NCBI RefSeq assembly: GCF_000305935.1
Contig: NC_018870.1
Location: forward strand, 1,257,942-1,321,941
Source: Thermacetogenium phaeum DSM 12270
Lineage (GTDB): Bacteria > Bacillota > DSM-12270 > Thermacetogeniales > Thermacetogeniaceae
Reading direction: 5' to 3'
DNA: 64,000 nucleotides
The position numbers were made by a program, and so were the translations under genes. This document shows, one piece after another, positions 2,008 through 57,226 of the stretch. Position 1 is the stretch's first letter; the number at the start of each line of letters is the position of its first letter. The notes under the pieces are model-generated. The model worked only from the letters and a program-made list of their open reading frames with translations. It searched no databases and was not told the DNA's origin.

Positions 2008-3147
<1,140 letters not shown>

Positions 3148-6873: not shown

Positions 6874-6899
6874 TGACACGAACGGTGACAATTAAATCA

Positions 6900-7080
6900 G
6901 TTTTTACGTTGGCAGGTGCCCGTGTTACGGGAGAATAGGGAATCAGGTGTAAGTCCTGAGCGGACCCGCCACTGTAACCAGGGACAGGCCGCGGGAGGCC
7001 ACTGCCACGGAACACCGGGGCGGGAAGGCGCGGTTGATGGATGACCTGGAGCCAGGAGACCTGCCTGCCGACAGGGCTCT
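6900..7080 (+). promoter_or_regulatory. Cobalamin (B12) riboswitch
   Basis: The aptamer is recognised from its conserved segments in order: GGCAGGTGCC at its 5' side, GGGAGAATAGGGAA, GGTGTAAGTCCTGAGC, CCCGCCACTGTAA, and the B12 box AGCCAGGAGACCTGCCTGCC at 7050-7069. These are hallmark elements of the adenosylcobalamin-binding RNA. It precedes an intrinsic terminator and then cobT, so ligand binding should favour termination and reduce cobT expression. The mechanism is inferred from the layout. Confidence 0.95.
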
Positions 7081-7095
7081 CTGAGGGATGATGGT

Positions 7096-16360: not shown

Positions 16361-16560
16361 GCAAAAAAAGTCAGGCAAAACCCTGCGATGCGCGTGGAAT
16401 CCCAGGAGTTTTGAGCCAACACCAAAACAATTGGAGCCTGGACTCTGGTTGTGGCTTGTAGGCCCCTCTTTTCGGGGTAACAAAAAGCAACCAGGAGGGC
16501 ACCACAGTGCTTGAGCCAGGTTCACAAACCCGGGTAACCACGGCATTTGTGGGGTTTTTA
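16361..16560 (+). ncRNA. ssrS: 6S RNA (RNA polymerase regulator)
   Basis: The roughly 200-nt transcript would be closed by a long stem pairing 16377-16397 with 16538-16558; I find about 20 pairs (some G-U), with only single-base bulges at 16392 and 16548. Inside, an asymmetric purine-rich bubble flanks a second helix (CTGGTTG near 16445 with CAACCAG near 16490) and a terminal hairpin CCCC/GGGG. Size, long closing stem, open centre and strong own promoter fit 6S RNA, which binds SigA holoenzyme as a promoter mimic. As I recall, Bacillus 6S-1 (bsrA) also lies by aspS. No protein-coding frame fits. Confidence 0.8.
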
Positions 16561-53490: not shown

Positions 53491-53520
53491 TTGACAGGAG
53501 TGTTCAATATTCTTTATAAT
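53491..53520 (+). promoter_or_regulatory. SigA promoter of the ileS T-box transcript
   Basis: Perfect TTGACA (53491-53496), 18-bp spacer, perfect TATAAT (53515-53520); start near 53527. Confidence 0.85.
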
Positions 53521-53526
53521 TACTTC

Positions 53527-53787
53527 AATCACAGGCACAATACAAGATTGATAAAGTGATGACCGGGACGAGTATGCTGTTTTCGGAATCAAGCAGCGAG
53601 CTGGGATAGTGAGAGCCGGTGTTTCCGTACTGCAGAAAATCACCCGGGAGCGCCTAACCGAAAACCGCATGGTAAGTAGGTCTGGCCGTTTTAGGAACGT
53701 TAACCCCTAATTCTTAATTCTCTGAAGAAGGAAATAGGGTGGTACCGCGGGAACCTCTCGCCCCTGTTGGTGAGAGGTTTTATTATT
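53527..53787 (+). promoter_or_regulatory. Isoleucine T-box riboswitch with terminator
   Basis: The conserved T-box AGGGTGGTACCGCGG is at 53736-53750 and is followed by an intrinsic terminator (8-bp stem 53752-53759 with 53772-53779, then TTATTATT). Upstream lies a long stem I beginning near GACCGGGAC (53560). On its 3' side the codon ATC (Ile) is at 53639-53641, followed by A, as expected for a specifier. Uncharged tRNA-Ile should pair with specifier and T-box and prevent termination, switching on ileS. Fold details are inferred. Confidence 0.93.
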
Positions 53788-53813
53788 AAATGTCTGTCAT
53801 GAAAATAGACCGC

Positions 53814-54066
53814 ATACCCTGCCGGTCTACCGCTCGACTCCCGATTCCAGGCCGGACAGGACGATGGCTCTTTTCGGGACAGCTCTGGGATGCTGCGTAA
53901 CAAGTTGCGAACTGCTTCTGTCAAACGCAGCGTTTGGCCTCGCTACAAATCCATTCCATCGAAACTCATTAGGTGTCTGTACTTGCATCCCGACCTGTCA
54001 TCCTCGCTTCGCCTGTCCTGTTACCCGGCCTTCCATAGGTCGCTCGCCGGCAGACCCGTCGGGTAT
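53814..54066. repeat. 253-bp imperfect palindrome in the ileS leader
   Basis: The left arm (about 53814-53893, from ATACCC to GGGATGC) is similar to the reverse complement of the right arm (about 53985-54066, from GCATCCC to GGGTAT), with shared blocks GGTCT, AGGCCGG, ACAGGAC and GACAG in the same order. The ~91-base loop contains its own hairpin (GCTGCGT 53892-53898 with ACGCAGC 53925-53931). No credible gene lies in it. It resembles a miniature inverted-repeat element or a large RNA hairpin, situated between the T-box terminator and ileS. Confidence 0.6.
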
Positions 54067-54418
54067 TTTAATACTCTGTTGGTGCTGCCGGAGGCGGCGT
54101 GAGGGTCTCCCATGAAATACGTTCCGGTTTATCCTTACGCTTGCTCCCGGATCTTTTTGGTTTTAGATTTGACGATAGATAAGCAGCAGACCGGCTCCCA
54201 TGACGGCATCTGCGGCATCCCTGTTGCAGAGCCGCCTATCTCGACATCCAGTCTCGATTCGGCTGCCGTTTGCTGCTCCTTCGTCAAGGGCGAAGCAAAC
54301 AACCTCCGTCAGGTCGCTGCGCCGACAAGGATGAACCCTTTTTTTGTTCCTTTGTTTGTGCCGCCGATGGTGGCATGGTAGTCTACCATAAAATAATCAT
54401 CATTTGATGAGGTGAAAG
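54067..54418 (+). other. Rest of the long ileS leader, no gene, structured
   Basis: About 350 bp with no credible ORF. An imperfect inverted repeat pairs AGCAGCAGACCGGC (54182-54195) with GCCGTTTGCTGCT (54265-54277), enclosing a smaller hairpin (TCTGC with GCAGA). A seven-T run at 54339-54345 has no strong stem before it. The ileS ribosome site GATGAGGTG lies at the end. Confidence 0.4.
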
Positions 54419-57226
54419 GTGTTGGAGTATAAAGCAACTTTGAATCTACCACAGACGGATTTCCCCATGCGTGCCAATTTACCGCAGAGGGAACCCGAAA
54501 TTCTGCGCTATTGGGAGAAAATCGGGCTTTATAAAAGGATTCAAGAGCAATCAAAGGGGAAACCGAAGTATATTCTGCACGATGGCCCCCCTTACGCCAA
54601 CGGCAATATTCACTTGGGACACACACTGAACAAAACCCTGAAAGACATTGTTGTGAAGTACAAGACAATGGCTGGATATGACGCTCCTTATGTTCCAGGG
54701 TGGGATACTCACGGTCTTCCTATCGAACAGCAGGCCATCAAAACGCTGGGAGTAGACCGTCACCGGGTTGCTCCCGCCGAATTCCGCCGCATCTGCAGGG
54801 AGTATGCTTTGAAGTATGTTGACATCCAGCGGGAGGAATTCAAGCGGCTGGGGGTCCAGGGTGACTGGGATCATCCTTATCTTACTCTGCACCCGACTTA
54901 TGAGGCCGTGCAAATCGGCATATTCGGCGAAATGGCCAAGCGCGGCTACATCTATAAAGGCATGAAGCCTGTGTATTGGTGCACGGACTGTGAAACCGCC
55001 CTGGCGGAAGCGGAGGTGGAATACCAGGAGGACGAAAGCGATTCCATCTATGTTCTCTTCCCGATCAGGGACGGAAAAGAGCTCATTAATGTCGATGAAA
55101 AAACCTATGTTTTAATCTGGACGACTACCCCCTGGACGATCCCTGGAAACCAGGCCATCTCCCTTCATCCCGACTATCGGTACGTGCTGGCAGAGGTGGA
55201 TGGGAGAAGGGTAATCGTTGCCGAAGAGCTCCTTCGCCAGGTGGCGGAAATCAAGGGGGAGACTCATCCGCCCATTCTCGGTGCCTGGCAGGGGCGTGAG
55301 TTGGAAGGGATTCGCTGTGCTCACCCCTTCTATGATAGGGACTCTTTGTTGATTCTGGGAGAGCATGTGACACTAGAGCAGGGAACCGGGGCGGTTCATA
55401 CTGCACCTGCCCATGGTACGGAGGACTTTGAGGTCTGCCAGAAATACGGCATCCCCGTCCTTTCTCTAGTTGACGGGAGCGGTAGGTATCTTCCCGAAGC
55501 GGGAATTTTTGCAGGAGAGGTTATCTGGGAGAGCAATCAAAAGGTTATAGCTGAACTGGAGAGGCGCGGCCTTCTCTACCATAAGAGCAAGATTGTGCAT
55601 CAGTACCCCCACTGCTGGAGGTGCAAAGAGCCCCTGATGTTTCGGGCTACTGAGCAGTGGTTTGCCTCCATTGATGGTTTTAGAAAAGAGGCTCTCAAGG
55701 CCATTGAAGGGGTGCGGTGGATACCTGCCTGGGGAGAGGAGCGGATCCGCAGCATGGTGGCGGAACGCGGTGACTGGTGCATCTCCCGGCAGAGAGTGTG
55801 GGGGGTACCCATCCCCATCTTCTATTGTGAAGACTGCCAGGCCACGATCATCAATGACGAAACGATCGGTTGGCTTCAGAAGCTTTTTGCGGAGCATGGA
55901 TCTGATGTCTGGTTTGAACGCTCCGCTTACGATCTCCTGCCGGCCGGTTTTAAGTGTCCATCATGCGGAAGGGCTAACTTCCGCAAGGAAACGGATACGA
56001 TGGATGTCTGGTTTGACTCCGGCTCCAGCCATATGGCCGTGCTGGAACAGCGCCCGGAACTCAAATGGCCTGCCGACCTCTACCTGGAAGGCAGTGACCA
56101 GCACCGGGGATGGTTTAACTCATCGCTCTGTACTTCTGTGGCTGTGCGGGGGGTAGCTCCTTATAAGGCGGTGTTAACTCACGGTTTTGTGGTTGACGAA
56201 GAAGGACGAAAGATGTCGAAATCTTTAGGAAACGTCATTTACCCCCAAGATCTGATCAACAAGTACGGAGCGGATGTTTTAAGGCTTTGGGTAACCTCCG
56301 CAGACTACAGGAATGATATGGCCGTTTCTTTGAACATTATGAAGCAGCTGGCAGAAGCCTACAGAAAGATCCGCAACACCTTCCGTTTCCTGCTGGGAAA
56401 CCTTTATGATTTCGATCCGGAGAAGGATTCTCTGCCCTATGAGCAGTTAAGCCTGTTGGATAAATGGATCCTCTTCAGGTTGCATCAGTTGATCCAAAGG
56501 GTAACCCGGGCTTATGAAGACAGTGAGTTTCATATTGTTTACCACGCCATTTCTACCTTCTGCGTGGTAGACATGAGCTCTTTTTACCTGGACATTACCA
56601 AGGATATCCTCTACTGTGGAGCGGCCGAAAGCAGGGAGCGCCGCGGCATTCAGACGGTGCTGTATGAGGCAGCGAATGTTTTGGTAAGACTGCTGGCACC
56701 CGTTCTTTGCTTCACCGCCGAGGAGATTTGGAGCTTCCTGCCGGGGGCCAGGGAAAGAGCGGTAAGCGTCCATCTTGCCGAGTGGCCGCAGGTGAATCGG
56801 CGTTACCTGGATCCGGAGCTAGAGAAAACTTGGGGTAAGATTCTTTCCTTGCGGGACCAGGTGAGCAGGGCATTGGAGCTGGCGCGCCAGGAAAAACTTA
56901 TCGGCCCCTCGACAGAGGCGGAAGTCTCCCTTTATCCTGAGGAAGAGGAAACGCTTCGGTTTTTGCGCCGGGTTGAACAGGATTTGCCGGCTCTATTTAT
57001 CGTCTCTGCAGTAAAGGTGCACGAGGTTTGGGAAGCTGCACCGGCAGGAGCTGTACCGGCAGAAGACGACTGGTCGCTGAAAATCGTTATTAGAAAAGCT
57101 CCCGGTAAGAAGTGTGTCCGGTGTTGGCTCTACAGAGAATCTGTAGGCGAATTCAGCGATCATCCAGATCTCTGCGAACGCTGCTATGAAGTTGTCCGCC
57201 AGCAGCCGGGGGGAGGGCCGGATTAA
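54419..57226 (+). CDS. ileS: Isoleucyl-tRNA synthetase
   Basis: Class I synthetase of 935 residues. HIGH-type motif HLGH in PYANGNIHLGHTLNKT near residue 60, the CP1 editing domain (TTPWTIPGNQAIS), KMSKS in GRKMSKSLGN near 600, and a C-terminal four-Cys zinc finger (CVRCWLY...CERCYEVV), the bacterial type. GTG 54419 or TTG 54422 is the start. Expression is probably set by the T-box 630 bp upstream. Confidence 0.97.
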   Translation: MLEYKATLNLPQTDFPMRANLPQREPEILRYWEKIGLYKRIQEQSKGKPKYILHDGPPYANGNIHLGHTLNKTLKDIVVKYKTMAGYDAPYVPGWDTHGLPIEQQAIKTLGVDRHRVAPAEFRRICREYALKYVDIQREEFKRLGVQGDWDHPYLTLHPTYEAVQIGIFGEMAKRGYIYKGMKPVYWCTDCETALAEAEVEYQEDESDSIYVLFPIRDGKELINVDEKTYVLIWTTTPWTIPGNQAISLHPDYRYVLAEVDGRRVIVAEELLRQVAEIKGETHPPILGAWQGRELEGIRCAHPFYDRDSLLILGEHVTLEQGTGAVHTAPAHGTEDFEVCQKYGIPVLSLVDGSGRYLPEAGIFAGEVIWESNQKVIAELERRGLLYHKSKIVHQYPHCWRCKEPLMFRATEQWFASIDGFRKEALKAIEGVRWIPAWGEERIRSMVAERGDWCISRQRVWGVPIPIFYCEDCQATIINDETIGWLQKLFAEHGSDVWFERSAYDLLPAGFKCPSCGRANFRKETDTMDVWFDSGSSHMAVLEQRPELKWPADLYLEGSDQHRGWFNSSLCTSVAVRGVAPYKAVLTHGFVVDEEGRKMSKSLGNVIYPQDLINKYGADVLRLWVTSADYRNDMAVSLNIMKQLAEAYRKIRNTFRFLLGNLYDFDPEKDSLPYEQLSLLDKWILFRLHQLIQRVTRAYEDSEFHIVYHAISTFCVVDMSSFYLDITKDILYCGAAESRERRGIQTVLYEAANVLVRLLAPVLCFTAEEIWSFLPGARERAVSVHLAEWPQVNRRYLDPELEKTWGKILSLRDQVSRALELARQEKLIGPSTEAEVSLYPEEEETLRFLRRVEQDLPALFIVSAVKVHEVWEAAPAGAVPAEDDWSLKIVIRKAPGKKCVRCWLYRESVGEFSDHPDLCERCYEVVRQQPGGGPD

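What the first reader, a model, noticed from the sequence alone, without database searches (positions are those of the whole stretch)
53788..54418. 630-bp untranslated stretch with a 253-bp palindrome between T-box and ileS
T-box terminators usually lie close to the regulated gene. Here a large imperfect palindrome (arms ~80 bp) plus a second inverted repeat are interposed. It could be a miniature mobile element or a second-layer RNA structure affecting ileS translation or decay.
Basis: partly seen in the sequence, partly recalled or inferred. Interest (0 to 1): 0.6.

Follow-up and report, generated by a model that had tools for sequence, protein, structure and literature searches.

The report
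Two IS110-ended non-coding mobile repeats
The odd stretch before the ileS gene is two small non-coding hitchhiking DNA elements inserted side by side; they carry the ends of the genome's own IS110 jumping genes, a family whose movement is steered by a guide ("bridge") RNA, so this looks like a natural case of a tiny element borrowing an RNA-guided recombinase.

Summary
The genome is Thermacetogenium phaeum. The block 53794-54384 is two abutting repeat units, A (315 bp) and B (278 bp), each bounded by a CT dinucleotide. The hairpin end of these units occurs 57 times in the chromosome (control 0). The units have no terminal inverted repeats and no target duplication beyond the CT. Two A units interrupt CRISPR repeats that remain intact in about 108 neighbouring copies, which shows clean insertion. 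An intact IS110-family element (DEDD recombinase, 405 aa, 3 copies) has the same two ends and sits in the same position of the same CRISPR repeat. Its leader RNA carries short stretches matching its own two ends (donor guides) and AAATACCT; AAATAC ranks 2nd of 4096 6-mers as the motif left of A/B insertion sites. Best reading: MITE-like non-autonomous elements mobilised in trans by an IS110 recombinase and bridge RNA. In relatives ileS has no insert. The B core is a covarying structure shared by the bacterial family, and its G-U pairs favour the strand opposite ileS. I found no report of natural IS110-driven miniature elements in the open literature searched. Movement itself was not observed.

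The parts
53491..53520 (+). sigma-70-type promoter (TTGACA-18-TATAAT) of the ileS T-box transcript
   Evidence: 12/12 consensus match
53550..53768 (+). T-box leader of ileS
   Evidence: Rfam RF00230, 100.6 bits, E 5e-21
53794..54108 (-). Unit A: non-autonomous IS110-ended repeat, including CT at both edges; strand given in the sense of the IS110 recombinase
   Evidence: 24 A-type units delimited by both ends, 5 of them ~211-bp internal-deletion forms, 86-95% identical
53794..53807 (.). Unit A end CTGTCATGAAAATA (IS110 right end in recombinase sense)
   Evidence: end pattern; IS110 copies L198/L199 have CTGCCCTGAAAATT
53818..54061 (.). imperfect palindrome of unit A (approximate extent)
   Evidence: consensus hairpin; fold z -2.84
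54081..54108 (.). Unit A hairpin end GGTGCTGCCGGAGGCGGCGTGAGGGTCT (IS110 left end in recombinase sense)
   Evidence: pattern found 57 times in the genome, control 0
54107..54108 (.). CT core dinucleotide shared by A and B
   Evidence: sequence; tandem junctions at other loci
54107..54384 (-). Unit B: second non-autonomous IS110-ended repeat, different interior, same ends
   Evidence: B-type copies 71-87% identical to this one; 14 further units with both ends
54127..54340 (-). Core of unit B: structured element with compensatory base changes, found across the bacterial family
   Evidence: 20 of 71 pairs with changes on both sides, 0/500 shuffles
54357..54384 (.). Unit B hairpin end TGTGCCGCCGATGGTGGCATGGTAGTCT
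54419..57226 (+). ileS; GAGGTG Shine-Dalgarno at about 54409-54414 lies outside the units
   Evidence: 73% identical orthologues

Best explanation
The block is a tandem insertion of two MITE-like non-autonomous elements, A and B. They have no transposase of their own. They keep only the two short ends of an IS110-family insertion sequence: a hairpin end with a conserved CACCAACAGAG stretch, and the end CTGCCCTGAAAATA, both bordering a CT core. An IS110 recombinase and its leader-encoded bridge RNA, supplied in trans by a full-length IS110 element of the same genome or a lost close relative, would recognise the ends as donor, circularise the unit and recombine it at CT in targets resembling AAATAC|CT. 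Shown here: multi-copy status, exact ends, clean insertion without duplication beyond CT, shared ends and shared CRISPR insertion site with IS110, absence from ileS leaders of relatives. Inferred: trans-mobilisation, and that the leader is a working bridge RNA with the guides I name. In the window, B probably inserted first between the T-box terminator and the ileS ribosome-binding site, then A inserted at B's end.
For: Multi-copy: hairpin-end pattern 57 places, 29 on + and 28 on -, control 0; 42 units with both ends in one scan, 40-346 bp long, with diverse interiors. Internal-deletion forms (~211 bp) and 58-100 bp minis keep the ends. Empty sites: two A copies split GTTTTCAGCGTACCTATGAGGAATTGAAAC after GCGTAC, in arrays with 47 and 61 intact repeats in the stretches fetched. 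IS110 elements L197-L199 share both ends, and L199 sits in the same CRISPR repeat; the 405- and 406-aa proteins of L199 and L195 are PF01548 + PF02371. L199 leader holds TGATTGT and CAGGGCAG, matching left and right halves of its own donor junction, plus AAATACCT; L195 holds CAGGGTAG, matching its CTACCCTG end. Left flanks of 61 non-tandem insertions: AAATAC is 2nd of 4096 6-mers, z 6.7 against local CT sites. Published precedent: a 22-bp donor works with bridge RNA in trans (PMC11208160); cargo between IS1111-family ends moves with transposase and RNA in trans, and the families make no target duplication (PMC11187229). Relatives' ileS leaders lack the block.
Against: No movement was observed; everything is comparative. 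The left donor half of the units (ATGGTGGT or GTGAGGGT) does not match the left donor guide of L199 (TGATTGT) or L195, so the exact partner may be extinct or tolerate mismatches. L195's guides also fit its own left end poorly. The target motif is weak: 8 of 61 have TAC|CT, though background is 1.5%. AATACCT also occurs in the leader of an unrelated IS110 (L196), so that 7-mer alone is weak evidence, and I chose it knowing the target. A and B hold no recognisable donor guides.
Confidence: 0.78

Rival explanations
1. The units are PATE-like elements moved by an IS200/IS605 Y1 transposase: hairpin near the end, no TIR, no target duplication, insertion after TTAC.
For: The genome has IS605 elements inserted after TTAC (L191/L192), and AATTAC is the top-ranked left-flank motif.
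Against: The IS605 ends share nothing with the units' ends, whereas IS110 ends match at both sides and share the CRISPR insertion site. The smallest forms keep a single hairpin, whereas IS200/605 elements have one at each end (own knowledge).
Confidence: 0.07
2. The block is a second regulatory RNA layer of ileS below the T-box.
For: Location between T-box and ribosome-binding site; strong folding; covariation in the B core.
Against: Absent from ileS leaders of relatives; dozens of copies elsewhere; the B core's nearly invariant G-U pairs and better energy favour the antisense strand; unit orientation is mixed genome-wide (29/28).
Confidence: 0.06
3. The B core is itself a functional non-coding RNA or a separate palindromic mobile element that became cargo between IS110 ends.
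For: In four genomes of another genus the core is multi-copy without the IS110-type ends, often about 206-208 bp with its own inverted repeat GGTTTATCCCTGC...GCAGGGATAAACC; compensatory changes. Compatible with the main explanation.
Against: No known RNA family matches; no transcript data; symmetric changes in palindromes can also arise by templated repair of quasi-palindromes.
Confidence: 0.3

Closest known systems
IS110-family insertion sequences with bridge RNA (IS621; PMC11208160)
   Same: CT core, no TIR, no duplication beyond the core, non-coding leader with target and donor loops; the units carry the same ends as IS110 elements of this genome.
   Different: Units A and B lack the recombinase gene and lack recognisable guide loops, and are far more numerous than the full elements.
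Prokaryotic MITEs (review PMC10969869; MITECca01, PMC9769881)
   Same: Short, non-coding, multi-copy, internally deleted forms, ends like those of a resident IS.
   Different: No terminal inverted repeats; the proposed partner is an RNA-guided DEDD recombinase. The 2024 review does not contain the term IS110.
Engineered in-trans IS1111/IS110 donors (seekRNA paper, PMC11187229)
   Same: Ends plus cargo moved by transposase and RNA supplied in trans.
   Different: Laboratory constructs; here apparently a natural, amplified family.
REP/BIME elements with RAYT transposases (PMC2817692)
   Same: Intergenic palindromic repeats proposed to be moved in trans.
   Different: Y1 rather than DEDD enzymes; much shorter repeats; ends unrelated here.

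Membership tests
MITE (broad sense: non-autonomous miniature element) | short, multi-copy, no transposase gene | tested here: met
   ORF list one search shows no transposase in the block
MITE (broad sense: non-autonomous miniature element) | ends shared with an autonomous element | tested here: met
MITE (strict sense) | terminal inverted repeats and target-site duplication | tested here: not met
   ends are not inverted repeats of each other; only CT is common to both sides
IS110 family | DEDD recombinase (PF01548 + PF02371) | tested here: not met
   absent from A and B; present in partners L195, L199. The units are filed as IS110-ended, not as IS110
IS110 family | insertion at a core dinucleotide without further duplication | tested here: met
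   CRISPR empty sites
IS110 family | bridge RNA with target and donor guides | tested here: not met
   no donor guides inside A or B; candidate guides in L199/L195 leaders
IS200/IS605-derived PATE | ends shared with a resident Y1 element | tested here: not met
T-box accessory RNA / ileS leader | conserved in orthologous leaders | tested here: not met
trans-mobilisation by IS110 | excision or integration in the presence of the recombinase | not testable with these tools
   needs an experiment

The most novel reading that the evidence does not exclude
A natural, diversified class of miniature elements parasitises an RNA-guided IS110 recombinase: only about 15-45 bp of end sequence is needed, so unrelated structured interiors (A, B, a 348-bp form) are shuffled as cargo, and at least one cargo (the B core) is a conserved structured RNA with its own function.
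Probability: 0.2. Interest if true: 0.8.

Novelty: new variant of a known kind. Interest (0 to 1): 0.58.

Why it matters
IS110 bridge-RNA recombinases are recent genome-engineering tools. Naturally amplified miniature donors would show that trans-mobilisation happens in the wild, with how little end sequence, how target choice behaves over many insertions, and how cargo is exchanged. IS110 lacks TIRs, so inverted-repeat searches would tend to miss such elements; they may be common. For annotators it also explains a misleading ileS leader.

Tried and rejected
ileS second-layer regulation: rejected on relatives and copy number. Rfam: only sub-threshold chance hits in the block. IS605 TnpA as mover: ends differ. 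Search for donor guides inside A and B: only self-matches of the terminus and 5-6-nt chance matches. Plasmid collection: no match. L196 as partner: its AATACCT lies in an unrelated leader and its recombinase is only 23-28% identical. The 8-copy IS110-type element L203: no matching guides or ends. Covariation inside A is thin, 3 of 74 pairs.

Full report
Identity and observation. The window lies in a 2,939,057-bp single-contig genome, the size published for Thermacetogenium phaeum, CP003732 (PMC3551663). The T-box is at 53550-53768, preceded by a perfect promoter at 53491-53520, and ileS starts at about 54419. The stretch between is non-coding, and two strong folds fill it.

It is repeated DNA. 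Searching the block against its own genome gives 44 matches and splits it into unit A (53794-54108) and unit B (54107-54384). The scorer capped at 40 candidates, so I searched the shared ends as patterns. The hairpin end GGTGCCGCCnnnGGCGGCRTGnnGGTCT occurs 57 times with 0 control hits. Pairing the two ends gives 42 units of 40-346 bp: 313-bp A types, ~270-bp B types, ~210-bp forms of A with one shared internal deletion, a 346-bp form, and minis.

Insertion mechanics. Two A units lie in CRISPR arrays. The stretches fetched hold 48 and 62 repeats; all but one in each array are intact GTTTTCAGCGTACCTATGAGGAATTGAAAC, and the exception reads GTTTTCAGCGTAC-CTGCCCTGAAAATA...GGTGGT-CTATGAGGAATTGAAAC. 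The insertion is therefore clean, with a CT on both sides and no other duplication. The ends are not inverted repeats. Tandem units share one CT, as A and B do in the window.

The partner. The ends do not match the genome's IS605 elements. They match an IS110-family element: L197-L199, about 1,560 bp, 99.7% identical copies, with ends CTGCCCTGAAAATT and GGTGTCACCGGAGGTGACATGATTGTCT, one copy in the same position of the same CRISPR repeat. A cousin, L195, has CTACCCTGAAAATA, the end found on several units. The conserved CACCAACAGAG after the hairpin is shared by A, B, L195 and L199. The L199 and L195 proteins are 405 and 406 aa with both IS110 domains. In recombinase sense the units read on the strand opposite ileS.

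Guides. IS110 elements encode a bridge RNA in the leader (PMC11208160, PMC11187229). In L199 the leader has TGATTGT at 149 and CAGGGCAG at 177, which match the two halves of its own donor junction; in L195 the second has changed to CAGGGTAG with its end CTACCCTG. Upstream lies AAATACCT or TAATACCT. The left flanks of 61 non-tandem A/B insertions prefer AATTAC or AAATAC before CT: AAATAC is 2nd of 4096 six-mers, z 6.7 against local CT sites; TAC|CT 8/61 against 1.5% background, P 4e-6. In single-base shuffles of the leaders, a target-like and a donor-like guide occur together in 3-4 of 5000. Caveats: I chose AAATACCT after seeing the target, and its inner 7-mer AATACCT also occurs by chance in the unrelated L196 leader. 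A and B themselves show no donor guides, so any bridge RNA must act in trans. Published work shows that a 22-bp donor plus trans bridge RNA suffices and that cargo between ends moves in trans.

The ileS locus. In relatives the T-box motif lies 61-80 nt before ileS in six cases (111 and 238 in two more) against 670 here. Removing the two units leaves about 80. The closest orthologues (L048, L049, L064; 73% ileS identity) carry, in the two printed (L048, L049), a homologous terminator hairpin followed directly by the ribosome-binding site. The block is therefore a lineage-specific insertion.

The B core. A and B sequences occur in other genomes of the same family and in none of the 41 genomes sampled from other families. 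In one other genus (G006, G012, G017, G019) the B core is multi-copy without the IS110 ends, often about 206-208 bp with its own inverted repeat. An alignment of 30 cores shows 20 of 71 pairs with changes on both sides, 84 such cells against 31.6 in shuffles, 0 of 500 reaching it, and far more than slid controls. Nearly invariant G-U pairs in helix 2 and the better energy on this strand suggest an RNA of the strand opposite ileS. Templated repair of quasi-palindromes could also create such changes, so RNA function is not proven.

Literature. My open-access searches found no description of natural non-autonomous IS110 elements; subscription papers and preprints were not covered. I therefore call it a new variant of a known kind.

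Noticed in passing
L048, L049, L064, about 2850-3000: The closest ileS orthologues give no Rfam T-box hit and lack the GGTGGTACCGCG motif, although L048 and L049 keep a promoter-like site and a terminator hairpin homologous to the T-box terminator: apparent loss of the T-box body.
   Followed up: partly
L030, L031, L199: CRISPR arrays of T. phaeum are insertion targets of both IS110 and its miniature derivatives, at the same base of the repeat.
   Followed up: yes
L228-L240, L253: In another genus of the family the B core is a palindromic repeat, often about 206-208 bp and often next to CTGATCGGTC-containing repeats.
   Followed up: partly
L037:4743-4800: A 58-bp mini-unit consisting almost only of the two ends.
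   Followed up: no
53700-53924 (minus strand): An ORF of 74 aa runs out of unit A; A copies differ by one-base indels near that end. Whether it is coding was not tested.
   Followed up: no
RE-flank table: Units ending in GTGAGGGT are mostly followed by CTGCC, those ending in ATGGTGGT mostly by CTA: two insertion-site programmes may coexist.
   Followed up: partly
6897-7082 and 16377-16559: Cobalamin riboswitch and 6S RNA in the window (Rfam).
   Followed up: no
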